Virus record (IMG/VR): IMGVR_UViG_3300032086_000028
Location: 1 to 20,326 of that record
DNA: 20,326 bases
Source: a virus
Reading direction: 5' to 3' (one strand)
Shown: piece after piece, positions 4,806 to 20,326 of the stretch
Layout: each line of letters begins with the position of its first letter
Numbering within the stretch: position 1 is the first letter of the stretch
The notes under the pieces: generated by a model
Database searches by the model: none
What the model saw: only the letters and a program-made list of their open reading frames with translations
What the model was told of the DNA's origin: nothing
Position numbers and translations under genes: made by a program

Positions 4806-5561
4806 CTAAGCCCCCAACAATCCCGCTAGGCCGCCGCCAATAGCGCCTAAGCCAGCGTAGGCCGGATTAATTGATCCGAGCATTTGAGCGCCGCCAAGCG
4901 CGCCTGACAACGCCGAGCCGATAGGCTGACGATACACCGGCGTGGCAGACGTGCTACCCACCGTGCCGCCTTGGATCATCGCCATATAATTCGCTAATGC
5001 CTGACCGGGCGCCTCTTGCTCAAATTGGAAGCGTTGCATATCCGCCTCAAGCTCGGCTTGCGATTGCGCCTCGCGTGCCGCGCCAACTTGCGCCAGCTTC
5101 TGTAGGTCGGCGAACCCAAACTCGTATGCGGCTGGTGCCTGCGCTAGTGCGTCTTGCTGTGCCTGATACGCTAGTGGCGCCAGCGCCTGACCAAGTGCCG
5201 CCTGCTGGTAGCCTGAGCCGTAGCGGCCGGACTTAGCCGCCTCAGCCTGCACCGCCTCGATTGCTGGGCGAAACGCGGCCGACTGTAGCGGGTTTGTGCC
5301 TGCTAGGTTTTGCGCCACAACGGCCTGCGTCATTGGGATAAGAGGCGATCCGGTAGTCGCCATCTGACGTTGCGCCGACAGCGCCTGCTCGCTTTCTGGC
5401 GAAAAACCAATCACCGTCTGACCGGGGTAATACTGCTGACCGGTGCCGCTGGCATAGAGCTGTTTAGCCTGCCCCATACCGTACTCAAGAAACGGCTTCG
5501 CGTATTCTGGTGGGCCGCTAGTCTGGGTGATTGTGCGTGTTGATCCGCCGCCTTTACTCAT
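4806..5561 (-). CDS. Small internal virion / ejection protein candidate
   Basis: The 251-residue protein starts MSKGGGSTRTITQTSGPPEY and contains YYPGQTVIGFSPESEQAL, SGRYGSGYQQAALGQALAPL and AELEADMQRFQFEQEAPGQA. I recognise these as features of a virion protein family common in marine podoviruses. It is strongly Ala/Gln-rich and helical. The last 40 residues are hydrophobic and Gly/Ala-rich (for example GLGAIGGGLAGLLGA), which could insert into a membrane, as proposed for the smaller ejected proteins of T7 and P22. It overlaps the end of the upstream GNAT-like gene by eight bases. Virion location is well supported by the family pattern and operon position; a channel-forming role is inference. 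Confidence 0.72.
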   Translation of the reverse strand: MSKGGGSTRTITQTSGPPEYAKPFLEYGMGQAKQLYASGTGQQYYPGQTVIGFSPESEQALSAQRQMATTGSPLIPMTQAVVAQNLAGTNPLQSAAFRPAIEAVQAEAAKSGRYGSGYQQAALGQALAPLAYQAQQDALAQAPAAYEFGFADLQKLAQVGAAREAQSQAELEADMQRFQFEQEAPGQALANYMAMIQGGTVGSTSATPVYRQPIGSALSGALGGAQMLGSINPAYAGLGAIGGGLAGLLGA

Positions 5562-6247: not shown

Positions 6248-7707
6248 CGCCTACCCACCGGCCTCACGTCAACGTCAATGCCGTGCGCGTATGACCATAA
6301 GCCACTCAATACCATCTTCACGCGGTGATAACGGTCGTGCGCCCTAAACGGCACAAACCCCGAGGCATTTGTCGTGCCGCCAGCCTTAAAGTTTACCGTG
6401 TCTGTGGGCGTGCCTCTAAGGCCGATTGACAAGTTAACCGTGCCACCTTCGTGGTACGGGTACAGGCGCGTGACGATTGAATGATTGCCGACTTTGACCG
6501 CCGCCTCACCTGTTACAATAGTGCCTTCCATTGGGTCGCCAGAAAACGCCGCTATCTTTGCGCCGTTTGCGCCGCCAAACAAATACTGGCCGCCTTTATA
6601 CAGCGCGCTATCAAGCGAGGCTGGCAGGGCGTCTAGGCTGGTGTTGATGTTGTCTAATTGCTCTAGCGAATAGCCAGCCGTAAAGAATGGCGCGACCAAA
6701 TCGTTTTTAACCCTCACCAAAGACCACCTGTTAAGGGCGTAGTTGAATATCAACAATGTATCTGGCTGATCGTCGAGTGAGCTGTTCGACACATACGACC
6801 AGACCGCAAGCTGATTTTGCGGATCAACGGTAGACGTCATCTTATCCTTATACGAGAAGTTGAAATCTTGCGTCAGGAAAAACCGATCCACCTTCTCGGC
6901 TCCGATCGGCTGTGAGCGCGCCCCGTCGAACATGTAAAAGCCGTCGTCAGACAGGTAGAATATGTTGTGGCCGATATTGCAAACCGACCCCGGCACCTGA
7001 CAACCTCTAGCGGTCTCAACTTTGTCAAACTGGAAGATCAACGGCGGGCCAGAGTAAGTGGCTCGCACGATGGCGCGCTCCATCAGGATCGTGCAGTATT
7101 CTCCGCCGACCATACCGGTAATGGCACCGGCGTCTGGTATTTCTTGGAAGTCACTTTGGTCGGTGCCAGCCGTCCAACTTGTTGCGTCGTTAAATCCAGA
7201 CCAGCGCACCTTATACGGCACACGCCCAGAGCCTTCGTCGATATTAGCCGTCCACACAAAGTCACGCACAACCGTAATAAAGTCAGCCTTTGGCGGCGTG
7301 CCGGACAAGTTAGAAAACGCGGTGTCGGTGCCTAGCTGAAACTTTTGCAACTCTTCGCCAATGCCGCCGGACGCAATAACCGTGTCGCCAAACTGCACAA
7401 AGCGCCAACGCTCGTTACTCTCCAAGTCATAAGCAGGTGTTCCTGACTTACTGACGTCGTCTAGGTTTGTTGTGCCAGCGTTAAACAGATACAGCTTTGA
7501 TGCGTCACCGGCGAACAGGCGCACGGTGCCGTCGTTATCTTTAGCCGCAAACACGTTTAGCAAGGTGTTGGACGCCGCGTTTGAATAATCAACAAACTGG
7601 TTAAAACTGCGATAGCCATTGTACGCCGGTATCACGTTTGTGGCCTCGACGACGCCAGCGTTGGTAAAGTCAGGCTGATCCGGTAGCCATTCGCCAAAAG
7701 TAATCAT
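6244..7707 (-). CDS. Packaged-DNA stabilisation protein (P22 gp10-like)
   Basis: I place the start at ATG 7707 (MITFGEWLPDQPDFTNAG), which overlaps the upstream TGA by four bases, giving 487 residues; an upstream TTG at 7749 is less likely. The protein has the beta-propeller-like sequence of phage stabilisation proteins: VRWSGFNDATSWTAG, QSDFQEIPDAGAITGMVGG, ERAIVRATYSGPPLIFQFDK, ISYL-type strands and DGFYMFDGARSQPIGAEKVD. In P22, gp10 attaches below the gp4 adaptor and closes the packaged head; here it should sit between the adaptor and the tail tip. An insert with SLEQLDNINTSLDALPASLD recurs in shortened form in the neighbouring 241-residue protein. Family assignment is strong; the length is near that of P22 gp10. 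Confidence 0.88.
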   Translation of the reverse strand: MITFGEWLPDQPDFTNAGVVEATNVIPAYNGYRSFNQFVDYSNAASNTLLNVFAAKDNDGTVRLFAGDASKLYLFNAGTTNLDDVSKSGTPAYDLESNERWRFVQFGDTVIASGGIGEELQKFQLGTDTAFSNLSGTPPKADFITVVRDFVWTANIDEGSGRVPYKVRWSGFNDATSWTAGTDQSDFQEIPDAGAITGMVGGEYCTILMERAIVRATYSGPPLIFQFDKVETARGCQVPGSVCNIGHNIFYLSDDGFYMFDGARSQPIGAEKVDRFFLTQDFNFSYKDKMTSTVDPQNQLAVWSYVSNSSLDDQPDTLLIFNYALNRWSLVRVKNDLVAPFFTAGYSLEQLDNINTSLDALPASLDSALYKGGQYLFGGANGAKIAAFSGDPMEGTIVTGEAAVKVGNHSIVTRLYPYHEGGTVNLSIGLRGTPTDTVNFKAGGTTNASGFVPFRAHDRYHRVKMVLSGLWSYAHGIDVDVRPVGRR

Positions 7708-8429
7708 TGTCCCAACCAAGTTGCAGTTGTTGTTGTCTGTGTCGCCCAAATGCCAGCCGCGTCAGGTATGTCAGTCCACGTCGCTGGTGTGTCGGCTTCA
7801 CCCGTCCACTCTTCGCCCAATATACTGCCGGTGATTGTAGCAGTAATTTCTGGCTGTGCCGACCCGACCATAGCAAACTCGCCAACCGGTGCCGCTGTGG
7901 CCGTGGCGGCGATTTCTGCTTCACCTTCAAATGCGTAAACCAAAAACGCCTGAGCCGTGGCGTTAAATGCAACAGTCGCCGCGCCGCCGTATGACGCAAT
8001 AAAGTTGGCGCTTGCAGTGGCGCTGGCCGCACCAGTGACTGACGCCGCAAATGGCTGTATGCGATTGGCTGTCGCAGTGGCAGTCGCCGCAATAGACGCG
8101 GCGCCGTCAGTGACCTGCACATGCTGAGGCGTGGCGGTGGCGGTTACAGCCACAGTCGCGGCGCCTGCTATATCGATAGCAAACTGCACAGCGCCGGTGG
8201 CAGTTAGCGCGACAGATGCGGAACCCTCAAACGCGCGAACCTCAAGGTTCGCCATTTGCTCAAGCGTGCCAAACGTGTCTAACTGCTCAAGCGTACCCCA
8301 GTTGTCTAGCTGTTCTAGCGTGGGGTTTGACCAGTCGACTTTAGTTAGCAGTAACGCGCTATCCAGTGAATATGGTAGCGCGTCAAGGCTTGACGTAAAG
8401 TTGTCTAGGCTCGGGGTTCCTGTCGCCAT
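7704..8429 (-). CDS. Ala/Thr-rich repeat protein, probable virion component
   Basis: This 241-residue protein has no recognised domain but a striking layout. Residues 5-26 hold SLDNFTSSLDALPYSLDSAL, which resembles an insert in the adjacent stabilisation protein. Residues of about 35-62 hold three copies of a nine-residue unit, TLEQLDNWG, TLEQLDTFG and TLEQMANLE. The rest consists of about seven imperfect repeats of about 20 residues with a core like GAATVAVTATAT, which alternate small and beta-branched residues as in beta-solenoids or beta-sandwich stacks. Trp-rich residues near the C-terminus (EEWTGEAD, TATWLGQ) may cap the array. AGGTG eight bases before ATG 8429 supports the start. It lies between virion genes, so an elongated tail or surface protein is likely; this is inference. 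Confidence 0.72.
   Translation of the reverse strand: MATGTPSLDNFTSSLDALPYSLDSALLLTKVDWSNPTLEQLDNWGTLEQLDTFGTLEQMANLEVRAFEGSASVALTATGAVQFAIDIAGAATVAVTATATPQHVQVTDGAASIAATATATANRIQPFAASVTGAASATASANFIASYGGAATVAFNATAQAFLVYAFEGEAEIAATATAAPVGEFAMVGSAQPEITATITGSILGEEWTGEADTPATWTDIPDAAGIWATQTTTTATWLGQ
7775..8250 (-). repeat. About seven imperfect ~60-bp coding repeats (Ala/Thr module)
   Basis: Within the repeat protein gene, units of roughly 60 bases each encode one copy of a G-A/S-A-S/T-V/I-A-x-T-A-T-A motif, for example GSASVALTATG, GAATVAVTATAT, GAASIAATATAT, GAATVAFNATA and GEAEIAATATA. Copies are diverged at DNA level, so slippage is not currently favoured, but the regular spacing points to growth by internal duplication. 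Confidence 0.75.
8245..8328 (-). repeat. Three tandem 27-bp coding repeats (TLEQLD unit)
   Basis: Three consecutive nine-residue units encode TLEQLDNWG, TLEQLDTFG and TLEQMANLE. The underlying DNA repeats a core close to CTCAAGCGT or CTAGCGTG on the plus strand. This is a separate short repeat lying N-terminal to the longer Ala/Thr repeats. Confidence 0.8.
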
Positions 8430-8437
8430 TACCGCAC

Positions 8438-8824
8438 CTAAGCCGCAGTGATGTCGAGATCACCCGTCGGTATTTTCAAGATGTCGCCGGACGCGATTGT
8501 CTTGGCTGTGGTGAACGCGCCGTGAATGAGCAGGTTGCCCGCGCTTGCCGCGTCAAAAATGCCGAAGTGCGACACGCTACCCCAAGAGCCAGTGGCGGCG
8601 GCAAACTCGATAGCCGCGCTGTTTGATGTGGTGCCACTAGCCGCCGCGCTAAACGTAGCCGCCACGCGGCTGTAGTTGTTGCCGGTCAACTCGGTGCCGC
8701 TGTTGTCGTCGTTAAACGACCCAGTCGACAGGCCGACATATACGGCTGATGGCATAGTGTAGGAACCGACAGACAGGATATGATCCAGTATCTCGTTCTC
8801 CAGGTAATCGGACATAGCAGACAT
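8438..8824 (-). CDS. Small virion protein, often annotated as tail fibre-like
   Basis: The 128-residue protein starts MSAMSDYLENEILDHILS and contains AVYVGLSTGSFNDDNSGTEL, NNYSRVAATFSAA, a WGSVSHFGIFDAASAGNLL segment and a C-terminus of short strands (SGDILKIPTGDLDIT). This YLEN..LDH / YVGLST / HFGIFDA pattern is a widespread phage virion family usually annotated as tail fibre or structural protein; its exact place in the virion is not settled as far as I know. GGAG nine bases upstream supports ATG 8824; the second Met (residue 4) is an alternative. It follows the adaptor gene by three bases, so a tail or connector site is more likely than the distal fibre. Confidence 0.78.
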   Translation of the reverse strand: MSAMSDYLENEILDHILSVGSYTMPSAVYVGLSTGSFNDDNSGTELTGNNYSRVAATFSAAASGTTSNSAAIEFAAATGSWGSVSHFGIFDAASAGNLLIHGAFTTAKTIASGDILKIPTGDLDITAA

Positions 8825-8827
8825 AGT

Positions 8828-9472
8828 TTAGCTCTCCACTGCTGAATTTTGGCGTTGATATACACTGCTGATAAACAACGACCCGGTGCCATAATGCGAG
8901 CGTTGCTCATCGACCTTGATCTCTTCGAGCGCAAGGTTGAACCGTTGCAGGTACTGCGACGCACGCGCCTCATCTAGCAAGAAAGCATACGCCTCGGCCA
9001 GTGCGCCGTAAAGGTAGGCATCCGGCGACCGGCTCAGGATGTTGTTTGTCTGGTTTGCGGCTGACAGGGCTGTGATCGTGCCGATGTAGATAATCTCCAT
9101 CGTGTAAACCGCATCCGGCACTGGGCGCAGTTTAATCTCGTCGCCCACAATGCTGTAGCCTAACGGCTTGCCTTGACCGCCCGACGAAAACTTTGTGTCT
9201 AGGGCTGACGGGCTGTAGTAGGACAGCACGGTCAGCGGCGTGGTGTTTAGCTTCACCTCGCGCACCTCGCGCAAGTCAGTCGGCAGGGCTAGGTATTCGT
9301 TACCCGCAACAGTTGACGCTGTGGCGCGTTTTTCCTGACTGCGTGTCTCCAGCTCGCGGCTCATGCGAGCCTCAGCCATTGTGATGAAGTCAGGTATCTG
9401 CGACGTTAGGTCGTCGCGCGCCAAGAAGTCGGCGATCGCCAGCTTCAGATTGTTGTAGGTATCGACTGCCAT
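8828..9472 (-). CDS. Head-tail adaptor protein (SU10/P22 gp4-like)
   Basis: This 214-residue protein starts MAVDTYNNLKLAIADFLARD and continues with IPDFITMAEARMSRELETR, a helical hairpin typical of phage adaptors. The middle has LALPTDLREVREVKLN and strands IVGDEIKLRPVPDAVYTMEI. The C-terminal part has LSRSPDAYLYGALAEAYAFL followed by a long helix that reaches the C-terminus. In SU10 and P22 this protein forms a ring under the portal and supports the stabilisation protein and tail. Gene order agrees: it lies downstream of capsid genes and upstream of the gp10-like gene. Its start overlaps the preceding stop (TAATG). Length and motifs fit the family well. Confidence 0.88.
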   Translation of the reverse strand: MAVDTYNNLKLAIADFLARDDLTSQIPDFITMAEARMSRELETRSQEKRATASTVAGNEYLALPTDLREVREVKLNTTPLTVLSYYSPSALDTKFSSGGQGKPLGYSIVGDEIKLRPVPDAVYTMEIIYIGTITALSAANQTNNILSRSPDAYLYGALAEAYAFLLDEARASQYLQRFNLALEEIKVDEQRSHYGTGSLFISSVYQRQNSAVES

Positions 9473-9795
9473 TATACGGTTCCGCCGCCTGTTCTAAAAT
9501 CACGGTTTTGATGATCGTTCAGCCACGCCTTCCAACCCTTCGGGTTTTCCTGCGGTGTGCCAAGCGTCTCAATCAGGTGATTATACACGACGTTGGGGAT
9601 TTCCGCTACATGTTGCATGTGGCGCTGGGTATTGCCGATCATACTGCCCTTGGAGTAGTCGTTATTCATTTGCCGGTTTAGTTTTACCAAGCCCTCAAAA
9701 CTTTGCTTTTGCTCAAGGTATGTCGAACCGTCGTTGTTTTGATGCAGGTAAATCTCTTTGCCGGTTAGCGGGTCTTTTTGTATTACGCGCTTCAT
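9472..9795 (-). CDS. Conserved phage protein between capsid and adaptor genes, unknown function
   Basis: The 107-residue protein starts MKRVIQKDPLTGKEIYLHQN and has a conserved-looking C-terminus, PKGWKAWLNDHQNRDFRTGG. This WLND..NR.FRT ending is a recurrent feature of small phage proteins encoded next to the adaptor in marine podoviruses. The middle (MQHVAEIPNVVYNHLIETLG) is helical. AGGTGGAA just upstream of ATG 9795 is a clear ribosome binding site. It is the first gene after the hairpin that follows the capsid gene and overlaps the adaptor start by one base. No function can be assigned; a role in virion assembly is inferred from position. Confidence 0.72.
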   Translation of the reverse strand: MKRVIQKDPLTGKEIYLHQNNDGSTYLEQKQSFEGLVKLNRQMNNDYSKGSMIGNTQRHMQHVAEIPNVVYNHLIETLGTPQENPKGWKAWLNDHQNRDFRTGGGTV

Positions 9796-9817
9796 ATTCC
9801 ACCTATGAATTAGAAGA

Positions 9818-9841
9818 GAGGGGGCAGTCGCCCGCCCCCTC
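9818..9841 (-). terminator. GC-rich hairpin after the major capsid gene
   Basis: An eight-base-pair perfect stem (GAGGGGGC with GCCCCCTC) encloses an eight-base loop and lies seven bases past the capsid stop. On the minus strand it is followed by TCTTCTAATTC, which is T/C-rich but not a strong T run. It is probably a rho-independent terminator or partial attenuator that keeps capsid mRNA more abundant than tail mRNA; an mRNA-stabilising 3' hairpin is the alternative. Confidence 0.7.
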
Positions 9842-9848
9842 AGTGATA

Positions 9849-10799
9849 TTATGAACCGCTGAGATCAAAAATCCCGGCGTGGGCCTTGGGGGCCGTAGGC
9901 TTGAGTGACCACTCAGTCACCAGGTGACTGGTGGTTGCATCGCCGTCCTTGGCCAGGTCTTCTTCAAGGAAGTTACGGCCGTTCAGTGTGCAGATTGAAA
10001 CAAAATCTGGATCAATCAAGAACACCCGGTCGTTACCCATCAGGCGTGATGGAACCGCCTCGACCGTACCGAAATCGGTCAAGAAAACACTGGTAGACCC
10101 GACGTATGTGACTTCCTTAGCGGCAGTCATATTTACGTCGTTAGAAACCAGATTACCTGACGCACTTAGGTCAGAAAAATTGGCTCTATTGGTGGCACTG
10201 GCAACCATCAGACGTGGGTTACCGCCGTCTGTCCAGGCGTCCTGCATGCCGTCTTCGATAAGGGCAAGTGTCAATGCCCGGTCGTCGCCGTCAGTGATTG
10301 TGTCTGTGCCATCACCAGTCGCAAAAGCACCGGCAGTCGCACCGACTGACCCGTTTGTGATCCAGCAAGAAAGTGACGCTGACTTGCGTGGGTCTGAACC
10401 AGAACGGGCAACGTCGGTGTCACCGATTGCCTTTTCGATGTCACGACGAAGCTCCAGGGCTTTTAACACTTTTTGGTAGTTGTGTTCACGCTCACGCCCG
10501 GCAGTATCGACAGCGTCGAGGGTGCCAGATGTTGCGAAGACCTTTTTGGAGATCTGGTGATAATTTCCAACGCGGCTTGTTGGAGTAGCGGCGGCGGTTG
10601 AAGTTGTCGCCCCCTCATTATGATAGTTGGTAGCTGACGCCGCTGTCAGCTCCTGGACCTGCCATTCAACAAAAATGCCGTTTGAGGTCTCTTTTTTTAC
10701 GTTAGAAAAAATTGGTGTTTCGGCCGGGTCGATCCGGTAGATAATATCCGCCAGTTGTTCCCGTTCACCTATAGCCGCTCCAGTAGCGAATACAGTCAT
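9849..10799 (-). CDS. Major capsid protein (SU10-type, HK97 fold)
   Basis: This 316-residue protein starts MTVFATGAAIGEREQLADII and continues with YRIDPAETPIFSNVKKETSN, TSRVGNYHQISKKVFATSGT and the helix NYQKVLKALELRRDIEKAIG. These segments identify the SU10-like capsid family (formerly a domain of unknown function), which has the HK97 fold. Later parts include ALIEDGMQDAWTDGGNPRLM and a C-terminal strand-rich domain ending KAHAGIFDLSGS. It follows the scaffold gene, as expected. It has the best ribosome binding site in the window (AAGGAG, eight bases before the ATG) and a hairpin after it, both consistent with very high expression. Length is normal for the family. Confidence 0.93.
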   Translation of the reverse strand: MTVFATGAAIGEREQLADIIYRIDPAETPIFSNVKKETSNGIFVEWQVQELTAASATNYHNEGATTSTAAATPTSRVGNYHQISKKVFATSGTLDAVDTAGREREHNYQKVLKALELRRDIEKAIGDTDVARSGSDPRKSASLSCWITNGSVGATAGAFATGDGTDTITDGDDRALTLALIEDGMQDAWTDGGNPRLMVASATNRANFSDLSASGNLVSNDVNMTAAKEVTYVGSTSVFLTDFGTVEAVPSRLMGNDRVFLIDPDFVSICTLNGRNFLEEDLAKDGDATTSHLVTEWSLKPTAPKAHAGIFDLSGS

Positions 10800-12124: not shown

Positions 12125-12727
12125 TTAATCTCCACCTTCAGACAAAACCGCTACATTGCCGTAATCATCAATATACTTACTGCCGCCTTCCCACGTCCAC
12201 TTCATCTGACCACCGGGCGGACTAATACGCCGTTCAGCCTCAGTCATTGGGTCAAGTACCCGATACCTAAATTCTTCTTGTGGTGTAAGCCGCCGTCTTT
12301 GACGCTGTTGCTGTTGCTGTCGTTGTTGTTGCTGTTGTTGCTGTTGCGCGGCCTCTCTGTCTGCCATCTGCTGTAAATAATCAGGCGTAATCTGTTGAGC
12401 CTGATAATTTGAAACGCCGCCTTGAGGTTGTGCAATCGGGCCTAACAGGGACATACCGGAAAGGTCTGGCGCGGTGCCAAAGTATGACGGCACAGTGGCT
12501 GACCCCATTCTAAATAATAGGTTTTGCTTTAGAAAATCTTGCTCCGCCTGCTGATTTTCCATTTCCGGCGAAATGTCCAGAAGCCCCATACGGGCATACC
12601 CAACAGGCCCAGTTCCGCCGACCTGTTCCATTATTGGGCTGTACAAGTTGTTAAAATACTCAGGCGTGTACGCTTCCTGCGGAACAGAAACCTGACGAAT
12701 ATAATCTTGAGAAGATGCAAGTCCCAT
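12125..12727 (-). CDS. Portal-adjacent protein with MGLLD module and polyglutamine stretch
   Basis: This 200-residue protein starts MGLASSQDYIRQVSVPQEAY; AGGTGA upstream includes the stop codon of the previous gene. Residues of about 40-100 contain GYARMGLLDISP, LLFRMGSATVPSYFGTAPDL and SGMSLLG, a module also present at the C-terminus of the upstream protein. Residues of about 125-145 are a nearly pure Gln/Arg run. The C-terminus has LTPQEEFRYRVLDPMTEAER and a terminal beta-type segment (YIDDYGNVAVLSEGGD). I do not recognise an enzyme. The shared module suggests that both proteins bind the same partner, possibly portal or capsid. Its function is unknown. Confidence 0.7.
   Translation of the reverse strand: MGLASSQDYIRQVSVPQEAYTPEYFNNLYSPIMEQVGGTGPVGYARMGLLDISPEMENQQAEQDFLKQNLLFRMGSATVPSYFGTAPDLSGMSLLGPIAQPQGGVSNYQAQQITPDYLQQMADREAAQQQQQQQQRQQQQQRQRRRLTPQEEFRYRVLDPMTEAERRISPPGGQMKWTWEGGSKYIDDYGNVAVLSEGGD
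12298..12352 (-). repeat. Polyglutamine-coding trinucleotide tract
   Basis: The plus strand shows a run of TTG and CTG triplets with CGT interruptions, which encodes about 15 Gln with a few Arg on the minus strand. Such a tract is prone to length change by slippage. Confidence 0.85.
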
Positions 12728-12734
12728 ATTTCAC

Positions 12735-13862
12735 CTACGATAAAAGTGTGTATCCTGTTAGGTCAGGCGCTTTGCGGAAATACTGCGGCCGCGTAGCGCC
12801 AGCGCGCCGGAACGCCAAGTTGGCTGTGTCAAAATCCATCTGCGGTATGCCGTAGCGATCAGCAAACAGGCTCATGCCCATAGGCGCAATATCCAGCAAT
12901 CCCATACGCGCATAGTCGCCAGCCTCATACGGGCCAGCGCCGGTAACCGGTGTGCCAAACGGTAGGTCGGCGCTCATGCGGCACGCCTGCAAGTCCTCGT
13001 CGAAGACGTAGCCGTCTGGGCATTGGTCTTGCTCGCCGGTCACGGGGTTGTACTCTGCGGGTACAATGTCTGGGCCGTCGCCGCCCATATCTGAGCCGTC
13101 GCCCATACCACTTTCACCAAAACCTGTTGTTACATATGGGTCTAGACCAAAAACATCCGAAAAAAAGCCTGTCATACCAAAAGACGGGGCTTGGCTTTGG
13201 AAGCTCTCAAAAATTCCAAGGCTTGGATTTGTTGTTCTGGTAAAGTTTTGTGTTCGACCCAAATCAAACCCAAGCAGGCCCATAAGTCCGGGCGCTTTTC
13301 CGGTTTGGTAGGCGTTTCTTATAGCCCTATCAACCCAATTTTCCCTTTGATCTGGCGGAGCCATAGCTATTGTCGTCATAGCTTTTGCAAGGTTTACGTC
13401 AAAGCCCCTGCCGCTACTTTGGTAATCTGCTCTAGCCGCATCAATTTCGCCTTGGCTGGGTGCAGTAGTCCTGCCAGCAAATGCAGGGGTTCCATATCTT
13501 GCCTGACTTTCGCCGGGTGACATACCAAGGCCAGTTTGACTTTGGCTTGATGCGTCATCGTGGGTGCCATAACCATACCCAGTGTCTGCGTATCCACTGC
13601 TGTATCCGCTATCAAAACCACTATCTTGTCCGCCCATATCACCGGGGCCACTCATGCCCGCATCACCACCGGGGTCGCCATCATTCTCACCACCGGTTCC
13701 GCCCCAGCCACCGCCGTGTCCCACGTCAGCATAAGCCGGTATGCCGTGTACCTTTTCACCCGATCCACCCATAGCCTTTAACAGCTTTGCTTCGTCTGGC
13801 GTGATGTATGCCAGCAGGTGCTTCTGGCCTCTAATCTTGGTGGTGCGTGGCGGATTTTTCAT
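12735..13862 (-). CDS. Portal-adjacent Gly/Asp-rich protein with C-terminal MGLLD module
   Basis: The 375-residue protein begins with the last base of the portal stop (TAATG). Its N-terminus, HLLAYITPDEAKLLKAMGGS then KVHGIPAYADVG, resembles the start of proteins encoded next to the portal in other marine phages. Residues of about 50-115 are a Gly/Asp/Ser low-complexity region. The middle (about 150-220) has a helical part including IRNAYQTGKAPGLMGLLGFD. A small Cys-containing motif, CPDGYVFDEDLQAC, lies near residue 290. The last 60 residues hold ARMGLLDIAPMG, ANLAFRRAGATRPQYFRKAP and DLTGYTLLS, which are repeated in the next gene. It is probably a virion or head-assembly protein; no specific function can be given. 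Confidence 0.72.
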   Translation of the reverse strand: MKNPPRTTKIRGQKHLLAYITPDEAKLLKAMGGSGEKVHGIPAYADVGHGGGWGGTGGENDGDPGGDAGMSGPGDMGGQDSGFDSGYSSGYADTGYGYGTHDDASSQSQTGLGMSPGESQARYGTPAFAGRTTAPSQGEIDAARADYQSSGRGFDVNLAKAMTTIAMAPPDQRENWVDRAIRNAYQTGKAPGLMGLLGFDLGRTQNFTRTTNPSLGIFESFQSQAPSFGMTGFFSDVFGLDPYVTTGFGESGMGDGSDMGGDGPDIVPAEYNPVTGEQDQCPDGYVFDEDLQACRMSADLPFGTPVTGAGPYEAGDYARMGLLDIAPMGMSLFADRYGIPQMDFDTANLAFRRAGATRPQYFRKAPDLTGYTLLS

Positions 13863-15925
13863 TACTGCGCCCTCGGTAGGTTCGTTGATATTTCGGCGTC
13901 GGTCACTGCCTTAGCCACGCGTAGTTGCGCCTCAGCTTCTAGCTCTTGTCGCCGTATGTCCATTTCCATAATCAGCTTCTCGCGCTCCAGCTCAAGCTCG
14001 GCCTGCATGCGCTCGCGCTTCAACGCGATATCGGCCTCGGCCTTTTGCTGTGCAAGTTGCATATCCATTTGCGCTTTTTGCTGTGCCATCATCAGCGCCG
14101 GATCTTGTTGCGGCTGTTGCTGTGCGGCCTGCTGTTTCTGCATTGCCAGCGTCTGGGCGACAACCTGCGGCGGGTTGAAGAATTGGTCGGCATCCTTAAA
14201 GCCGCCAATCTCGGCAATCGAGCGCAGTGTGTTGACGTATTGCGGCGCTGACACCAGCGGGTTGTCGGCGCCCAACTGCATCAAAATTTGCTCTTGCTTC
14301 GCCGCGATCTGCGTCAGGAACGCAATCTTGGTTTCGTCGTCAGTGGTGCCAAGCCCGACCTGCACGATGGTGTCAAACTGCGACTTCCACTCGGCCGGGT
14401 TAATCGGCACAAAGCTGTTGTTGAGGCGTAGCATCTTCTCGTTGGTGTCGTGCTTTAGCACAAGCGCCAAGATGCCCTTAAACAAGTCCTTCACGCCGGT
14501 CTCGGCCATTGTGCGCGCGTAGCTTTCCAACTTGATCTGCGCGCCGCGTACCGTGGCGGCAACCGCACTAGCGGTAGACGACTGCAATGCGTTTGCGTCG
14601 AGGCCCTGCGACGCGGCTGACATGCCGGTGCGCTGTTCCTTGACCGTGTCCAGGTAATCCATCAGCGGCCGTATTTCGTTACCCACAGACGCGCCAGCAA
14701 GTGGCTGGATCATGCCCGGTTGGCGAACCCGGATCACACCGCCAGCCTGTGCATCCAATAAATCGTCAAGATTTACGGCGCCCTCGACCGCCGCTATGCG
14801 CGGCAGTGTCGACGAATAGACGCTGTCCAGATACTGGCGCATCAGCGTAGTCTTGATGACCTGCAAGTCCTCGGTCATGTCGTAGATCGAGCGACCGACC
14901 AGCCGGTGCGGCATCAGGATAGGCGACGCAACCGCAAACGGGATGTGATCCCACGGCTCGTTGTGCAAAATCTCGGCGCCGTCGGTGCCAATCGCGCAGA
15001 TGCGGCGGCGCTCGGCAATGCCGTCGCCGTCGAAGTCGACGTTCATGATGCACTCGTGATAGATGACCGAGCGCAAAGTCGGGTCGGCCGGATCAACGCC
15101 GGTCGCGGCCTCGATGTCTTGGAAACGGTTGTTTACCTCGCGGTCGGTGTCCAGCTCATTCTCGCCTGCGTACTTCTCGACCAAGTCGCGGTCGTAACCC
15201 ATAGCCACAAGCTCGGACACAGTCAGCGACGTGCGGTGCGCCATAAAGTGCGCGTCCTCAAGCGAGGTGCAGTGACGCGACACGAGAAACTCTTCGGGCG
15301 GCACGTTGATGACCTTGATCTCGCCCTCGCGCCGTGTGACGCGGACGGTCAGGTCGTACTCAGAGCGAAGTGGCACGGTCTCGCCGGTTTCTTCGCTGTA
15401 CATGCTTTCCATTACGGTTTCGGCCTGCTCGACAATTTCGACGTCGGGGTCATTCATCAGCATGACCAGCTCGTCTTCGGACAGGCCGGTGTACTCTTCC
15501 TCGTCTACCTGTTCTTTTTCCTCGTAGAAGAATTTGACGACGCCCATACGAAATAACAGCGCGTCCTTGAAAAACGTGTGAAGCAGTTTATAGCCGTCAT
15601 TACGCTGGTTGATGATGTAGTTAACGTAATTCGACGCCTGCTCGGCGGCCTCGACGTCCTCGGCAGTGCGAGGCGCAAAGCGGACGTATTTGTCATTTGC
15701 CGTAAACACGCGCATCAAATTTGGCATGATGGCTTCGACGGTGTCGGCAACCTCTGTGGCGACTACAGACGACCGGCCCTCTACCTCGTTGCCCAGCGGC
15801 TCACCCAGATAAAAATCAAGGGCGCGTAGGCGCTCCTCGGTGTACTCGCTGTCAAAGTGGTTTAGCGCGTCGGTGATTTCACCTGACACGATCGAGCCGA
15901 GCTGGTAGTCGTCCATTTTAGCCAT
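13862..15925 (-). CDS. Portal protein (P22-type)
   Basis: I place the start at ATG 15925 (MAKMDDYQLGSIVSGEI), giving 687 residues; a GTG at 15937 in frame is less likely. The N-terminal half has the family pattern RLRALDFYLGEPLGNEVEGR, SSVVATEVADTVEAIMPNLM and VFTANDKYVRFAPRTAEDVE, then FFKDALLFRMGVVKFFYEE. The core includes NVPPEEFLVSRHCTSLEDAH, PFAVASPILMPHRLVGRSIY and DNALQ-type helices before the clip region. Residues of about 605-675 form a long Gln/Glu/Lys/Arg helix that corresponds to the barrel of P22-type portals reaching into the head. The protein forms the ring at the DNA-entry vertex and binds terminase and adaptor. It overlaps the preceding small gene by eight bases. Confidence 0.92.
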   Translation of the reverse strand: MAKMDDYQLGSIVSGEITDALNHFDSEYTEERLRALDFYLGEPLGNEVEGRSSVVATEVADTVEAIMPNLMRVFTANDKYVRFAPRTAEDVEAAEQASNYVNYIINQRNDGYKLLHTFFKDALLFRMGVVKFFYEEKEQVDEEEYTGLSEDELVMLMNDPDVEIVEQAETVMESMYSEETGETVPLRSEYDLTVRVTRREGEIKVINVPPEEFLVSRHCTSLEDAHFMAHRTSLTVSELVAMGYDRDLVEKYAGENELDTDREVNNRFQDIEAATGVDPADPTLRSVIYHECIMNVDFDGDGIAERRRICAIGTDGAEILHNEPWDHIPFAVASPILMPHRLVGRSIYDMTEDLQVIKTTLMRQYLDSVYSSTLPRIAAVEGAVNLDDLLDAQAGGVIRVRQPGMIQPLAGASVGNEIRPLMDYLDTVKEQRTGMSAASQGLDANALQSSTASAVAATVRGAQIKLESYARTMAETGVKDLFKGILALVLKHDTNEKMLRLNNSFVPINPAEWKSQFDTIVQVGLGTTDDETKIAFLTQIAAKQEQILMQLGADNPLVSAPQYVNTLRSIAEIGGFKDADQFFNPPQVVAQTLAMQKQQAAQQQPQQDPALMMAQQKAQMDMQLAQQKAEADIALKRERMQAELELEREKLIMEMDIRRQELEAEAQLRVAKAVTDAEISTNLPRAQ

Positions 15926-16064
15926 TTTTCTTCGCACCTTTAGCCACGCGTTTTGGCGCGGGTTTTGCTTTTATTGCAGTGGCATTATCGCACACTTCCT
16001 TTGTTTGTTCTAGCGGGGGCTGGACGCGGCGTATGCGGCCCACTGTCGGGCGACGCACCATCAT
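15918..16064 (-). CDS. Tiny basic protein just upstream of portal
   Basis: A 48-residue reading frame starts with ATG ATG (16064), where the first ATG overlaps the TGA of the upstream gene. It reads MMVRRPTVGRIRRVQPPLEQ and ends in a Lys/Ala/Pro-rich tail (KAKPAPKRVAKGAKKNG). It fills the only gap between its neighbours and overlaps the portal start by eight bases. This tight fit is the main reason to accept it, along with its likeness in charge to the other small genes upstream. I do not recognise a family. Binding to nucleic acid or to acidic head proteins is possible. Confidence 0.6.
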   Translation of the reverse strand: MMVRRPTVGRIRRVQPPLEQTKEVCDNATAIKAKPAPKRVAKGAKKNG

Positions 16065-16282
16065 TGCATTGTCACCTTGCGCGTCTTCTTTTTCGCGCCC
16101 TTGCCCGTGCCTTTAACCGGCGTGTTTATCTTGGCCGCAGTCTCGGTGTGACCGCTGGTTGTCGCCACAGTCTTTGGCGGGCGAGGCGCTGGTGTAGTCT
16201 CAGCGACAGGGTTTTTGCCTTGGATACAGCGTTGCTTAATTTCGCAACGCCCACGATATGGGCAGTTGTCACATACAATCAT
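16061..16282 (-). CDS. Small protein with four-cysteine N-terminus and basic tail
   Basis: This 73-residue protein starts MIVCDNCPYRGRCEIKQRC. Cysteines at positions 4, 7, 13 and 19 are spaced CxxC-x5-C-x5-C, which would suit one zinc ion. The remaining 50 residues are Thr/Pro/Lys-rich and end KGAKKKTRKVTMQ, probably disordered and strongly basic. It overlaps both neighbours by four bases (ATGA at each end). A zinc-ribbon plus basic-tail layout suggests nucleic acid or protein binding, but no specific family is recognised. Confidence 0.7.
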   Translation of the reverse strand: MIVCDNCPYRGRCEIKQRCIQGKNPVAETTPAPRPPKTVATTSGHTETAAKINTPVKGTGKGAKKKTRKVTMQ

Positions 16283-16443
16283 TTTTTCGCCTTTTTCTTT
16301 TTCTTCGCAGTTTTTGCCGCCTTCTTAAACGCGGCGGCGCTCGGCGCGCCACGCGTGCCGGGCTTTCTCATTCTCTCGCCGGAGCCAGCGGCAATGCGCT
16401 TACGCTTGGCGTGGATGTTTGCGTATAAACCTTTAGCGGGCAT
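16279..16443 (-). CDS. Tiny conserved basic phage protein (KGLYANIHAKRKRIAAGSGE type)
   Basis: The 54-residue product starts MPAKGLYANIHAKRKRIAAG and continues SGERMRKPGTRGAPSAAAF, ending in a run of Lys and Ala. I recognise this N-terminal motif from many small hypothetical proteins of marine phages, so the gene is real despite its size. About one third of the residues are Lys or Arg. The stop overlaps the next start (ATGA), and the start lies inside the end of the preceding 16-residue frame. The function is unknown; a DNA-binding or virion-packaged basic peptide is a reasonable guess. Confidence 0.8.
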   Translation of the reverse strand: MPAKGLYANIHAKRKRIAAGSGERMRKPGTRGAPSAAAFKKAAKTAKKKKKAKK

Positions 16444-16483
16444 ACTTCTTGCCGCCCTTGCCTTTTTTCTTCATGCAAGCCAT
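16433..16483 (-). CDS. Possible 16-residue microprotein
   Basis: A frame of 16 codons begins with the last base of the upstream stop (TAATG) and ends ten bases inside the next gene. It encodes MACMKKKGKGGKKYAR, which is half Lys/Arg. It fills the only gap between two well-supported small genes, and ultrashort Lys-rich frames are seen in related phages. It could also simply keep ribosomes moving across the gap. Evidence is limited to position, start context and composition. Confidence 0.45.
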   Translation of the reverse strand: MACMKKKGKGGKKYAR

Positions 16484-16653
16484 TACCTTTTTCTCGCTTT
16501 CTTTTTTGCCGTGTCAGATAGCTGACTGAAGTGTAACACCTTTTTGCTTTTCGGTGTCATCCGCGCGCCGGTCATAATTGTGCCGTCCTTGTGCTTATGC
16601 ACGGCGCCACGATATTTTGTGCCGTTACGAAAGTAGTGTAGTCCTGCCGCCAT
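16483..16653 (-). CDS. Tiny conserved basic phage protein (YFRNGTKYRGAVHKHKDGT type)
   Basis: This 56-residue frame starts MAAGLHYFRNGTKYRGAVHK one base after the stop of the upstream gene (TGATATG). It continues with KDGTIMTGARMTPKSKKVL and ends HFSQLSDTAKKKARKR. The arrangement of a short beta hairpin with K.G..HTG.TH-like text, then L.HF.LS..A..KAR, is one I recognise from small hypothetical proteins of marine phages. The pI is very high. It probably belongs with the other tiny basic genes in function; no role is known. Confidence 0.78.
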   Translation of the reverse strand: MAAGLHYFRNGTKYRGAVHKHKDGTIMTGARMTPKSKKVLHFSQLSDTAKKKARKR

Positions 16654-16654
16654 A

Positions 16655-16912
16655 TCAACACTTCCATCTGCGTCGAGCCGCCTTGCCGCGCGGGCTAGTC
16701 CAGCTCCTCGATCTGGCGCAAAAGCTCTTGCGCCGCTTGGCGTCCTTACTGCCCGGCTTTACTTTGCCGGTCACTGGCGCCTTTAACTTTGAGCCGGTGG
16801 CTCGGTTGTATTTTGCACGACCCTTCGCGGTAAGTCCACCGCCCTGCTTAACCGACAGCTTCTCGCCGCGACCGACTGACAGGCTTACGTTTTTCTTTTT
16901 GCGGGCGGGCAT
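16655..16912 (-). CDS. Small basic protein, DUF6321-like
   Basis: This 85-residue protein starts MPARKKKNVSLSVGRGEKLS and contains GGGLTAKGRAKYNRATGSKL and RRKSFCARSRSW, ending AARRRWKC. The GGLTAKGRAKYNRATGS core and the KRRKSFCAR segment are the signature of a small phage family that I believe is catalogued as DUF6321 (recalled, not searched). The family has no known function. Nearly a third of the residues are Lys or Arg. The start overlaps the stop of the polyvalent-protein gene by one base (TAATG). The conserved single Cys in SFCAR and the terminal RRWKC are worth noting. Confidence 0.85.
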   Translation of the reverse strand: MPARKKKNVSLSVGRGEKLSVKQGGGLTAKGRAKYNRATGSKLKAPVTGKVKPGSKDAKRRKSFCARSRSWTSPRGKAARRRWKC

Positions 16913-19086
16913 TAGTACAGTATTCCTTGCTGTGGCTGTTGGCGCATGCCTTCGCCTGCGGCTAGTAAGCCCTGACCGCCAGTAACAAATAGTGGCACGC
17001 CCTCTTGTATCGCCGCACGCATTTTAGGCGTGATTTCGATGGTGAAGCGGTCGCCCAGCTCTTCAACGTATTTGTTGCCGATAAAGGCATCTTTGTCGAA
17101 GCGTTTGGCTACTTTTTTGGCTACTTTCGGGATGATCTCGTCGTAATAAACTTCAAGTCCGGGGTTATTCCACCGATCAGCCTGCAAATCACCCGGTGAA
17201 AACGACACATATCTTTTGCCTTCGTTTGCGGCCTGTATCAAAAGACGCTTGATGCCAGCCTCAGCAAATTTCTCTGAGTTTCCGACAAGCGGGCCTATAG
17301 GTATGTCAGCCCTAAATTCACCCCTAGTATTGTCAAGCTCATCTCTGGCGCTTCTTATTCTAAAGTCAAGATCTCCCATCTTTGTGGCAATGTCTACGCC
17401 GTCAAAATTTGACGGGTCAATCGGAAGTTCTCTGCCATCAGCAGTTAGCGCAACTTGGTCTGTGCCTCTCATAAGAGCGTTTACCTCTCTGCGGCTGAGA
17501 AGCTCTGAACCGTCTTTTGCTTTTATAGCCAAACCGGCCATAGCATAATCTTTGTCAAATTCGTCATTTGTTATTTTTACACCGCCAACTTTTTTAGCGA
17601 TTTTGTTCATAAAGTCTCTATAAAAAGCATCCCTCTCATCCACAGCATTGTTTAGTTTTTGCTGTATCGGCTCTACCTGCTTTTTTATTTGAGCCAGTTT
17701 TTCCCTGTCTTTTGGGGTATCAAATCCGTATTTTCTGCCTTGTTGTCCCCAATCAGACTGCAACTCTTCAACATACAAAACATCATTTACACCGCTTTCG
17801 GTATTACGATCTTTGGTGCGAGAATGAACCGCAATATTAGGTTCGTCAAAATGGCCTTTTTCATAGAAATAACCTGTCATGCCTTCATATTCAGGTATTT
17901 GTAAAAGGTTTTCGCGGTAGTTTGTGCCACCCTCTTCGACCCAGCCCTCTTCGCCAAATCTAGCCTCGCCAGCTCTGCCAACGCCTATATCGCCAGCATC
18001 ATAGGCCGCATTAGTTGCTAAGGCTCTAGCTTCGTTCAAGCTCCAAGCCTCTCCGCGTATCGGAGCGCCAGAAGGGCCATAAACCTCGTAACCAAAGTTG
18101 TCATTCCCTCTAATTTCATAATCAGTGTCTTGGTCGCGCCAAACAAATCTAGGCTCTTCATAATACTCTGCCTTTGCTTGATCTGCAAAAGCGCTTTCAA
18201 TTTCCTTTTGTTCAGTGTGTGAAAGCCTGTCCGCCCAAGACGTCATTTCGTTAGGAAAGTTCTCATTATTCGCCCTAAACGCTAAGTTTGACGCGTAATC
18301 TTCATCAAAGCCAGCGCCTATCAAAGCTGACTTTATATCGTCTGGATCGAACATATACATTAGATCATCGACGCGTCCAGATATGTCGTAATCGTAGTCA
18401 GGCTCCATAATTTCTGGTTCGCCAAAGCGAAGCTGACTTTCGCCAAATATATCGCCACCCTCAAGCACCGTTTCCTGCGGCCTAATCTGCTTCTCCTGCA
18501 ACAGACCAACCAGCTCTTCGCGTGTAACCTGCGGCTGATCTAATAATCCGCGCAGTCCGGGTGTAAACGCTATTTCGTCAGGCTTTACACCGGCGTTTAT
18601 AAGCATCTTTTCCATCTGCTGACCGGTGCCTTTAGCTTGCGGTAAACGCGCGGCCGCCTCTAACGCCTGACTATAAAAACCCAGATCGTCGACTTGGCGC
18701 GGCGGTATTGTGCGCGTTACGCCGCCACCGCCCCCAGACATGCCGATAGCGCCCGCTGGCTTGGGTGCCAGTAGTCCGGCGCCAGTAAACAGCCCAGCGG
18801 CCTCTGCGGCGTCTGCAAGCACGTTTTCGGACAGCATACCGGTATATGGGTCGGTTTCTAGGGGCATACCGCCCATACCGCGCGCCACAGTGCGCGCGAC
18901 CGACTGAATAGGCGCAGGGAACGACAAAACGCGCTCGCCCTGCGGAGTAATGGCAAACGGCAAAATCATGCCAGCGTCGGCGTAGTCGCCCAAGCCGTAC
19001 AGCGACTGCATCAGGGCGTCTGAGTTATTCGGCGTACCTTGTGCGCCTCGCATCATCATGTCGTCGGGGGACAGTAAGCCGTTCAT
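16912..19086 (-). CDS. Large polyvalent-type protein with LPD-like domain
   Basis: I place the start at ATG 19086, which overlaps the terminase stop as TGATG, giving 724 residues; an in-frame TTG at 19098 is less likely. The first 130 residues are Met/Gly/Ala-rich and end in a polyglycine linker. The second half has motifs of domains found in phage polyvalent proteins: GGTNYRENLLQIPE (about 386-399), IAVHSRTKDRN, LYVEELQSDWGQQGRKYGF (about 436), YVSFSPGDLQADRWNNPGLE (about 625), YYDEIIPKVAKKVAKRF and a closing EITPKMRAAIQEGVPLF. Polyvalent proteins are thought to be delivered with phage DNA and act against host defences or on host targets. The activity of this domain is not known to me. The conserved half is AT-richer than the first 130 codons. 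Confidence 0.82.
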   Translation of the reverse strand: MNGLLSPDDMMMRGAQGTPNNSDALMQSLYGLGDYADAGMILPFAITPQGERVLSFPAPIQSVARTVARGMGGMPLETDPYTGMLSENVLADAAEAAGLFTGAGLLAPKPAGAIGMSGGGGGVTRTIPPRQVDDLGFYSQALEAAARLPQAKGTGQQMEKMLINAGVKPDEIAFTPGLRGLLDQPQVTREELVGLLQEKQIRPQETVLEGGDIFGESQLRFGEPEIMEPDYDYDISGRVDDLMYMFDPDDIKSALIGAGFDEDYASNLAFRANNENFPNEMTSWADRLSHTEQKEIESAFADQAKAEYYEEPRFVWRDQDTDYEIRGNDNFGYEVYGPSGAPIRGEAWSLNEARALATNAAYDAGDIGVGRAGEARFGEEGWVEEGGTNYRENLLQIPEYEGMTGYFYEKGHFDEPNIAVHSRTKDRNTESGVNDVLYVEELQSDWGQQGRKYGFDTPKDREKLAQIKKQVEPIQQKLNNAVDERDAFYRDFMNKIAKKVGGVKITNDEFDKDYAMAGLAIKAKDGSELLSRREVNALMRGTDQVALTADGRELPIDPSNFDGVDIATKMGDLDFRIRSARDELDNTRGEFRADIPIGPLVGNSEKFAEAGIKRLLIQAANEGKRYVSFSPGDLQADRWNNPGLEVYYDEIIPKVAKKVAKRFDKDAFIGNKYVEELGDRFTIEITPKMRAAIQEGVPLFVTGGQGLLAAGEGMRQQPQQGILY

Positions 19087-20326
19087 CAAACCACCCAATT
19101 CGTCTTAGGTTTCAGTGTGCGATTGTGATTATAACCCCTTGAGTAGCCGCCAGCAACCGCACCCTGCCCCGCGAAGGTCAGCACAAACGCGTCGGCCACG
19201 TCGGGCGACCTTTGGCCCCTACGCTTCATCTCGTCCTTGCTCTCGACCTTCAGCTTGCCGGTCGACAGGTATTTGTACCGTATGCCCGACAATTCCGCCA
19301 TTAACGTGCCGTCGTCCGGTATGTGGCAGTCTCGCGCCTCAAACCACTCGCGGGCGCCCCAAAACAGCTCATCGCGTAGCCGGTTAAAGCGATCCTTTAG
19401 CGACGCAGTCTCGGATACCGACACAGCGACGGCGGGCATGTCCAGCTCGCGCAGGCGATCCGCCAGACCGGCGCCCAAGCCGATTGCGTCAATGTATATC
19501 GCCTGCGGGCGCATGCTGTACGGCACGGCGTCGTATTCCGATAGCACGATACCGGCCAGCTCCATCAGGTCTTTGTTCTGCCACGTCTTAATCGGCTCGA
19601 CCAGCACGTTGCCCTGTCGCTTCGCCAGTGCCGACCGGTCGCCGCCAAACCGCGCCACGTCCAAGCCCCAGACGACGGGGGTGGTTGGCCCCGCCTCGAC
19701 GTCGCGTGTCACGGCGTCCTCGATTAAGTGCAACGGCAACAACACGTCGTCAGATTGCGTCGGAAACTCGCCCAGCACGCGCACCTTAAACACGTTGCTT
19801 TCGGCGCCGTATTTTTGCGCCATTTCGTCGATAAATTTGGGGTCGACGTACTCGCCCTCTTCGCAAGACACAGTGATGCAGTGCCACTTGTCGCGGTCAT
19901 TATGGAACGCGTCGTAAAAATACCCGTCGGATCGCGTGGGGTTCCCGCACATGATGATTTTCGCGCCGGGGGTACTTAGCGCGCCGCTGGCCGTCTCAAA
20001 TATCACGTTAGGCACGCCGGACGCCTCTTCGACCACAAACAGCATGTGGGGGCTGTGGAAGCCCGCCAAGCTCTCAGGGTTTTCGCGCCTCGATGTACGC
20101 GCCACGGCGAAGCTGTCGGTTGCCCCTTTGAGCGATATTTTGTCGCTCTTAAACTCCAGCAGGTCTTTGAACGCCGACGGCATATTGCGCGCCCAGCGGT
20201 CTATCTCTGTCCACAGCACGTCGGATAGCTGGTGCGCGCTGTTGGCCGTCACGGCGACTTTGCAGGGGTAGTGCGTCATCAGCCACCACAGCACGACCCA
20301 GCTCTCAAATGCGGTTTTTCCGACGC
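19086..20326 (-). CDS. terL: Terminase large subunit, partial (N-terminus beyond right edge)
   Basis: The frame is open to the right edge, where the first complete codons read VGKTAFESWVVLWWLMTHYP; this is the GKT of the Walker A loop, so only the region before it is missing. HMLFVVEEASGVP carries the Walker B acidic pair, and IIMCGNPTR looks like the coupling motif. The nuclease domain shows VWGLDVARFGGDRSALA, then AIYIDAIGLGAGLADRL, and DVADAFVLTFAG near the C-terminus. These are the three acidic sites of the RNase H-like fold. The enzyme threads DNA into the procapsid through the portal and cuts it at the end. About 413 codons are visible. The small subunit is not in the window and probably lies to the right. 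Confidence 0.94.
   Translation of the reverse strand, partial: VGKTAFESWVVLWWLMTHYPCKVAVTANSAHQLSDVLWTEIDRWARNMPSAFKDLLEFKSDKISLKGATDSFAVARTSRRENPESLAGFHSPHMLFVVEEASGVPNVIFETASGALSTPGAKIIMCGNPTRSDGYFYDAFHNDRDKWHCITVSCEEGEYVDPKFIDEMAQKYGAESNVFKVRVLGEFPTQSDDVLLPLHLIEDAVTRDVEAGPTTPVVWGLDVARFGGDRSALAKRQGNVLVEPIKTWQNKDLMELAGIVLSEYDAVPYSMRPQAIYIDAIGLGAGLADRLRELDMPAVAVSVSETASLKDRFNRLRDELFWGAREWFEARDCHIPDDGTLMAELSGIRYKYLSTGKLKVESKDEMKRRGQRSPDVADAFVLTFAGQGAVAGGYSRGYNHNRTLKPKTNWVV

What the first reader, a model, noticed from the sequence alone, without database searches (positions are those of the whole stretch)
16912..19086. Polyvalent-type effector gene embedded between terminase and portal
A 724-residue protein carries the YVEELQSDWGQQGRKYGF and YVSFSPGDLQADRWNNPG motif pair of large polyvalent proteins, yet sits in the packaging operon, start-coupled to terL. 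Its position suggests that it is made with virion proteins and could be packaged and ejected to act on the new host. I see no recognisable catalytic signature of a known effector in the first 380 residues, so what it delivers is open. The motif recognition is from family knowledge; packaging and delivery are inference.
Basis: partly seen in the sequence, partly recalled or inferred. Interest (0 to 1): 0.72.

Follow-up and report, generated by a model that had tools for sequence, protein, structure and literature searches.

The report
Swappable effector gene in phage packaging operon
This marine phage gene is one of many interchangeable versions at a single spot between two packaging genes, each pairing one of a few shared front ends with a different predicted enzyme, here of acetyltransferase-like shape, which suggests that the phages carry swappable weapons into bacteria along with their DNA.

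Summary
The gene is real: minus strand, 724 aa, start overlapping the terL stop (TGATG). AlphaFold gives the module a GNAT fold (compact relative: Z 11.0 to the ICL2 C-terminal domain, 9.8 to the tRNA-acetylating toxin AtaT). The usual acyl-CoA loop motif is absent and is replaced by the invariant EExQSDWxQ, so the chemistry is open.

The larger result is the locus. Across about 70 related phages (terL 76-100% identical), the terL-portal gap holds such a gene, built from one of four unrelated N-terminal heads plus one of at least nine unrelated cargo domains. DNA homology between near-identical backbones breaks at the start codon (or within about 170 bp) and resumes at the stop codon. Cargo type is random with respect to the terL tree. 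57 of 62 slot proteins end in a G/S-L/I-L/M motif, also seen at the C-terminus of the phage's DNA-ejection protein.

Best reading: a polymorphic, probably virion-packaged and ejected effector. Packaging and activity are inferred, not shown.

The parts
19086..20324 (-). terL (large terminase subunit), cut by the window end; its stop codon overlaps the slot gene's ATG
   Evidence: PHROG phrog_2 terminase E=2.5e-45; TGATG junction
16912..19086 (-). slot gene: 724-aa head-plus-cargo effector candidate (P0001)
   Evidence: relatives
18733..19014 (-). N-terminal head of type A (residues about 25-118), low-confidence in AF2, shared with slot proteins that carry unrelated cargo
   Evidence: HMM matrix; pLDDT mostly under 55 over residues 1-122
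16951..18699 (-). cargo: QSDW module, residues about 130-712, predicted GNAT fold
   Evidence: AF2 pLDDT about 90, VIA-align to PDB, family alignment
17722..17775 (-). motif YVEELQSDWGQQGRKYGF (residues 438-455), end of strand 432-443 and the loop where GNATs hold the acyl-CoA pyrophosphate
   Evidence: E441, Q443, S444, D445, W446, Q448 invariant in 61 sequences; secondary structure
17158..17211 (-). motif YVSFSPGDLQADRWNNPG (residues 626-643), strand 626-629 and start of the next helix
   Evidence: R638 invariant, G632 and G643 nearly so
17287..17718 (-). lineage-specific helical insert (residues about 457-600) inside the GNAT-like fold
   Evidence: helices 458-499 and 566-589; missing or shorter in relatives
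16915..16926 (-). C-terminal GILY, the terminal G/S-L/I-L/M motif
   Evidence: 57 of 62 complete slot proteins have it in the last 10 aa, background 4.9%
13862..15937 (-). SU10-type portal gene, downstream border of the slot region
   Evidence: PF23899 E=4.5e-202
4806..5561 (-). DNA-ejection-type protein whose C-terminus GLLGA carries the same terminal motif
   Evidence: phrog_4287 DNA ejection protein E=1.1e-14; 16 of 22 distinct tails in its family match

Best explanation
The gene is one allele of a polymorphic effector slot in a marine SU10-portal phage group. Shown: a single locus between terL and portal carries, in different phages, genes made of one of four interchangeable N-terminal heads and one of at least nine unrelated cargo domains, and whole genes are exchanged between near-identical genomes. 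Inferred: the protein is translated with the packaging genes; the head and the terminal G-L-L-type peptides recruit it into the procapsid, as the DNA-ejection protein with the same terminal motif would be; it enters the host with the DNA; and there the cargo acts as an enzyme on host or defence components. In this allele the cargo is a GNAT-fold domain (predicted) with an unusual active-site loop (EExQSDWxQ), most likely a group-transfer enzyme acting on a protein or RNA target.
For: (1) Head x cargo matrix: heads A-D each pair with several of QSDW, FADR, HDYAGHG, ART, ParB-type, HEIQH metallopeptidase, DUF7178, PBECR5 and GNAT cargo. (2) DNA homology between L001 and L089, L090, L092, L094, L096 and L099 ends at the slot start codon or within about 170 bp and resumes at the stop codon. 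(3) terL tree of 65 loci: 28 cargo changes against 29.3 (26-31) for shuffled labels; heads 27 against 37.1 (30-42). (4) Base composition: terL 60% GC, head 63%, cargo 42-51%. (5) Terminal motif in 57/62 slot proteins and 16/22 ejection-protein tails; 0 in terL, portal, scaffold, capsid and three other proteins. (6) The cargo families are parts of polyvalent phage proteins. (7) GNAT fold: all 50 best-ranked entries for the compact relative are GNAT-fold.
Against: No virion proteomics was found for this group, so packaging is unproven. The canonical acyl-CoA loop motif [RQ]xxGx[GA] is absent in 52 of 61 members, so acetyl transfer may be wrong. Plain Foldseek against PDB is weak (best E=4.8e-3). 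The terminal motif was noticed post hoc, the proteins are not independent, and the ejection protein's tail is Gly/Ala-rich. Heads have no detectable relation to any known virion protein.
Confidence: 0.66

Rival explanations
1. The slot is an accessory-gene hotspot whose proteins act inside the producing cell (counter-defence, superinfection exclusion or host shut-off) and are never packaged; the shared heads only mediate folding or membrane association.
For: Accessory hotspots with fast turnover are common in phages (general knowledge). Cargo turnover is near random with respect to the terL tree. No direct packaging evidence exists.
Against: Translational overlap with terL; conserved heads and terminal motif across unrelated cargo, the motif shared with the ejection protein; the same cargo families lie next to portal, terminase, tail or ejection genes in other phages.
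Confidence: 0.22
2. It is an ordinary structural or head-completion protein that happens to contain an enzyme-derived domain used as a scaffold.
For: Position between terL and portal; 824-955 aa relatives follow portal or tail genes in other phages; Rhodococcus phage E3 gp205, which carries a sibling cargo domain, is annotated as structural protein.
Against: The domain is replaced wholesale by unrelated folds in otherwise 85-95% identical DNA backbones, which a structural role would not tolerate; 14 invariant, mostly polar or aromatic residues look catalytic; the related phages have no such gene between terL and portal.
Confidence: 0.07
3. It is a polymorphic toxin in the strict sense (MuF-like), delivered to kill or inhibit competitors, with immunity in the producer.
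For: Constant N-terminus, variable C-terminus, location in the packaging module, toxin-like cargo such as PBECR5, ART and AtaT-like GNAT folds.
Against: No MuF domain; no co-exchanged immunity gene, because DNA homology resumes at the stop codon in most pairs.
Confidence: 0.12

Closest known systems
MuF polymorphic toxins of temperate phages (Jamet et al. 2017, PMC5576092)
   Same: Constant N-terminal part plus variable C-terminal effector, gene in the DNA-packaging module, predicted delivery with DNA.
   Different: No MuF domain, four unrelated heads instead of one, a terminal G-L-L motif at both ends, no linked immunity gene, and a different phage group (marine, SU10-type portal).
Polyvalent proteins (Iyer et al. 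2017, PMC5512222)
   Same: Same cargo repertoire (ART, GNAT, metallopeptidase, PBECR, ParB-type); encoded among virion genes; predicted to be ejected.
   Different: Here usually one cargo per protein behind a shared head. The 2017 paper states that polyvalent proteins did not conform to the constant-N/variable-C layout of secreted toxins.
GNAT-fold tRNA-acetylating toxins (AtaT, TacT, KacT) and the GNAT-like C-terminal domain of mycobacterial ICL2
   Same: Predicted fold of the cargo (compact relative: AtaT Z 9.8, 128 residues, 3.8 A; ICL2 Z 11.0, 139 residues, 3.2 A).
   Different: About 10-13% identity, large helical insert, no canonical acyl-CoA loop, invariant EExQSDWxQ instead.
P22 and T4 internal or ejection proteins (P22 gp7/gp16/gp20, T4 Alt, T4 capsid targeting sequence)
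   Same: Proposed route: enter the procapsid by recognition of a peptide or domain, leave with the DNA.
   Different: No sequence relation tested or found; here the passenger domain varies between sibling phages.

Membership tests
Polyvalent protein | two or more domains of disparate activity in one polypeptide | tested here: not met
   Only one module besides the head was found in P0001; a few slot proteins (L137) do have two
Polyvalent protein | domain shared with known polyvalent proteins | tested here: met
   Module present in ORFs that carry LPD22, LPD38, ART-PolyVal, ddrB-ParB
Polyvalent protein | match to a curated LPD or polyvalent Pfam model | tested here: not met
   0 of 61 module members
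Polyvalent protein | encoded near virion genes | tested here: met
   terL and portal neighbours
Polyvalent protein | delivered into the host with the DNA | not testable with these tools
   needs virion proteomics or a translocation assay
MuF polymorphic toxin | MuF domain at the N-terminus | tested here: not met
   No Pfam match in P0001 or family members; the four heads matched no PHROG
MuF polymorphic toxin | constant N-terminus with variable C-terminal domains | tested here: met
MuF polymorphic toxin | linked immunity gene | tested here: not met
   Homologous DNA resumes at the slot stop codon in all close pairs with different cargo but L100, where it resumes about 260 bp on
MuF polymorphic toxin | toxic activity of the C-terminal domain | not testable with these tools
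   needs expression assay
GNAT acyltransferase | GNAT fold | tested here: met
   Predicted models; all 50 best-ranked entries GNAT-fold for the compact relative, top Z 11.0 over 139 residues at 3.2 A; fold predicted, not solved
GNAT acyltransferase | acyl-CoA loop motif [RQ]xxGx[GA] after strand 4 | tested here: not met
   9 of 61 members; P0001 has QSDWGQQGRKYGF there
GNAT acyltransferase | acyl transfer activity | not testable with these tools
   needs enzymology

The most novel reading that the evidence does not exclude
The phages have a general cargo-loading system: short G-L-L-type peptides at both ends, together with a disordered head, are recognised by the procapsid (portal, scaffold or capsid protein), so that any enzyme gene captured at this one site is packaged and ejected. 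The effector is exchanged as a whole-gene cassette so often that its type is uncorrelated with the phage backbone.
Probability: 0.33. Interest if true: 0.88.

Novelty: new variant of a known kind. Interest (0 to 1): 0.75.

Why it matters
If the proteins are packaged, this is a natural plug-in site for ejected effectors. It would give a head and a terminal tag that can be tested directly, a catalogue of enzymes that marine phages deploy at the first moment of infection, and a fold assignment for a widespread motif of polyvalent proteins that Pfam does not cover. It also joins two ideas kept apart so far: polymorphic toxins and polyvalent proteins.

Tried and rejected
Pfam, NCBIfam and PDB sequence searches with P0001 or its profile gave nothing. 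Plasmids: no match. Profile-profile comparison found no relation among heads, among cargo types, or between heads and cargo (one weak short HDYAGHG-headA match, probability 17%, ignored). Heads match no PHROG and no non-slot ORF in the loci. Heads as strongly hydrophobic or membrane segments: not supported (5 of 71 above 1.6 mean hydropathy). Host identification by a terL search of bacterial genomes failed (only distant MAG contigs). PHROG label 'endolysin' for phrog_7348 rejected: the match covers the QSDW module of a 2,564-residue profile, not a lysin domain. Promoter and terminator scans are at chance level. Literature searches for such a slot gave no description; the library holds open-licence papers only. 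No paper on E3 virion proteomics was found in the library, so gp205 'structural protein' is annotation only.

Full report
Observation. The ORF at 16912-19086 lies on the minus strand and encodes 724 residues. Its ATG overlaps the terL stop codon in TGATG. terL and an SU10-type portal flank it; about 975 bp of small, mostly lysine/arginine-rich ORFs lie between it and the portal. The window is a 20-kb virus record; a 37-kb IMG/VR contig, L001, matches 11.4 kb of it at 99.87%.

Is it polyvalent-type? Pfam and NCBIfam give nothing for this protein, and none of 61 aligned relatives matches an LPD model. A search with residues 382-465 nevertheless finds 125 relatives in IMG/VR, many in ORFs of 2,000-4,500 residues. 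Iterative HMM searches show that the whole region from about residue 130 to 712 is one conserved module in those giants. Of six giants scanned with Pfam, four carry LPD22, LPD38, ART-PolyVal or ddrB-ParB above cut-off.

What is the module? AlphaFold2 on the 61-row alignment gives about 90 pLDDT over the module and mostly under 55 over residues 1-122 and at the last 21 residues. Its order of elements (strands 388-396, 418-429, 432-443, helix, long helical insert, helix 604-621, strand 626-629, helices 632-663, strands 669-674 and 678-684) is that of a GNAT with an insert. A compact relative without most of the insert aligns best to GNAT-fold structures throughout the 50 entries shown: ICL2 C-terminal domain Z 11.0 (139 residues, 3.2 A), AtaT Z 9.8 (128 residues, 3.8 A), TacT3 and KacT 9.4, GCN5 8.9. 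The full model agrees more weakly (ICL2 Z 9.3, 144 residues, 3.3 A; GCN5 7.8), and plain Foldseek is weak. The loop after strand 432-443, which in GNATs holds the acyl-CoA pyrophosphate (general knowledge), carries EELQSDWGQQGRKYG with E441, Q443, S444, D445, W446 and Q448 invariant. The canonical [RQ]xxGx[GA] is absent in 52 of 61 members. I therefore call it a GNAT-fold enzyme of unknown donor. Iyer et al. describe two RimI-like GNAT families in polyvalent proteins; whether this module is one of them was not tested.

The locus. A terL-anchored survey of IMG/VR shows that in related phages the gap between terL and portal holds a slot gene, but often with a quite different product. HMMs built from seeds sort 71 slot proteins into four heads and at least nine cargo families, in some fifteen combinations. 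Cargo families identified by Pfam or motif include PBECR5 nuclease (5.6e-17), ART-PolyVal (1.3e-5, below the curated cut-off), DUF7178 (5.1e-25), GNAT (4.1e-5, below cut-off, with canonical loop RSQGVG) and a HEIQH metallopeptidase. FADR and HDYAGHG are my labels for unnamed families. Among backbones with terL at least 98% identical to that of the window, all four heads and six cargo families occur. Some phages carry two slot genes in tandem.

Exchange. Nucleotide alignments of L001 with L089, L090, L092, L094, L096 and L099 stop at L001 position 3496-3663 (the slot ATG is at 3494) and resume at 5661-5667, at the stop codon. Besides short matches to the head-coding DNA, nothing else in the gap is homologous, so there is no co-exchanged immunity gene. 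Cargo coding DNA is 42-51% GC, while terL is 60% and the head 63% (profile). On a terL tree of 65 loci, cargo changes 28 times, against 29.3 (26-31) for shuffled labels, while heads change 27 times against 37.1 (30-42). The predominance of FADR cargo limits the power of this test, but the cargo carries no detectable signal of backbone ancestry.

Packaging. No virion proteomics was found for this group. Circumstantial evidence: (a) the gene overlaps terL; (b) 57 of 62 complete slot proteins have G/S-L/I-L/M in their last ten residues (background 4.9%) and 59 in the first forty (background 24%), whatever their cargo; (c) 16 of 22 distinct tails of the DNA-ejection-type protein family (window 4806-5561) carry the same motif, against none in terL, portal, scaffold, major capsid, p214, p501 and p432; (d) related cargo modules sit close after portal or tail genes in other phages, and an HDYAGHG relative, Rhodococcus phage E3 gp205, is annotated as structural protein. 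The motif was found post hoc, the sequences are related, and the ejection protein tail is glycine-rich, so (b) and (c) are leads, not proof.

Conclusion. Shown: module identity, modular slot, whole-gene exchange. Predicted: GNAT fold. Inferred: loading into the procapsid through head and terminal peptides, ejection with DNA, and enzymatic action on host targets. The nearest known systems are MuF polymorphic toxins (PMC5576092), which share the layout but not the head, and polyvalent proteins (PMC5512222), which share the cargo but, according to their authors, did not conform to the constant-N/variable-C layout. I rate it a new variant of a known kind.

Noticed in passing
window 15930-16667 (minus strand): Several small ORFs between slot gene and portal, most of them rich in lysine and arginine (21-35% K+R); just upstream (16650-16911) is coding-like sequence with a KSFCARS motif. 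Possibly DNA-binding or head-internal proteins.
   Followed up: partly
window 12125-12727 and 12735-13862 (minus strand): Two neighbouring proteins share a segment 'YARMGLLDI...LxFRxG...APDLxGxxLL'; the 375-aa protein's family ends in a conserved TLLS/G/A, similar to the terminal motif of slot proteins.
   Followed up: partly
window 1470-3527 (minus strand): 685-aa protein (phrog_5880) with a long Ala/Gly-rich stretch, perhaps an internal or ejection protein; contains GLLY near its C-terminus.
   Followed up: no
window 246-929 (minus strand): Tail fibre C-terminal region matching many tail fibre PHROGs; the sequence looks like an S74-type chaperone domain (from memory).
   Followed up: no
L083 and L014 (C72C1 lineage): These two share a slot N-terminus (FDIPVDEGTR..LLP..GEFSFAVP) resembling head A, with different cargo (FADR and QSDW) and extra DNA (1.6-2.3 kb) between terL and the slot gene.
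   Followed up: partly
L249 (MW202675) 5174-10455: QSDW and HDYAGHG modules lie in one 848-aa protein and FADR in the next gene, soon after the portal: cargo types that are alternatives in the slot occur together here.
   Followed up: partly
L094 7439-8272: Short slot protein with head C and a ParB-like C-terminus (FVRDGHHR), only a weak Pfam match (E=0.042).
   Followed up: no
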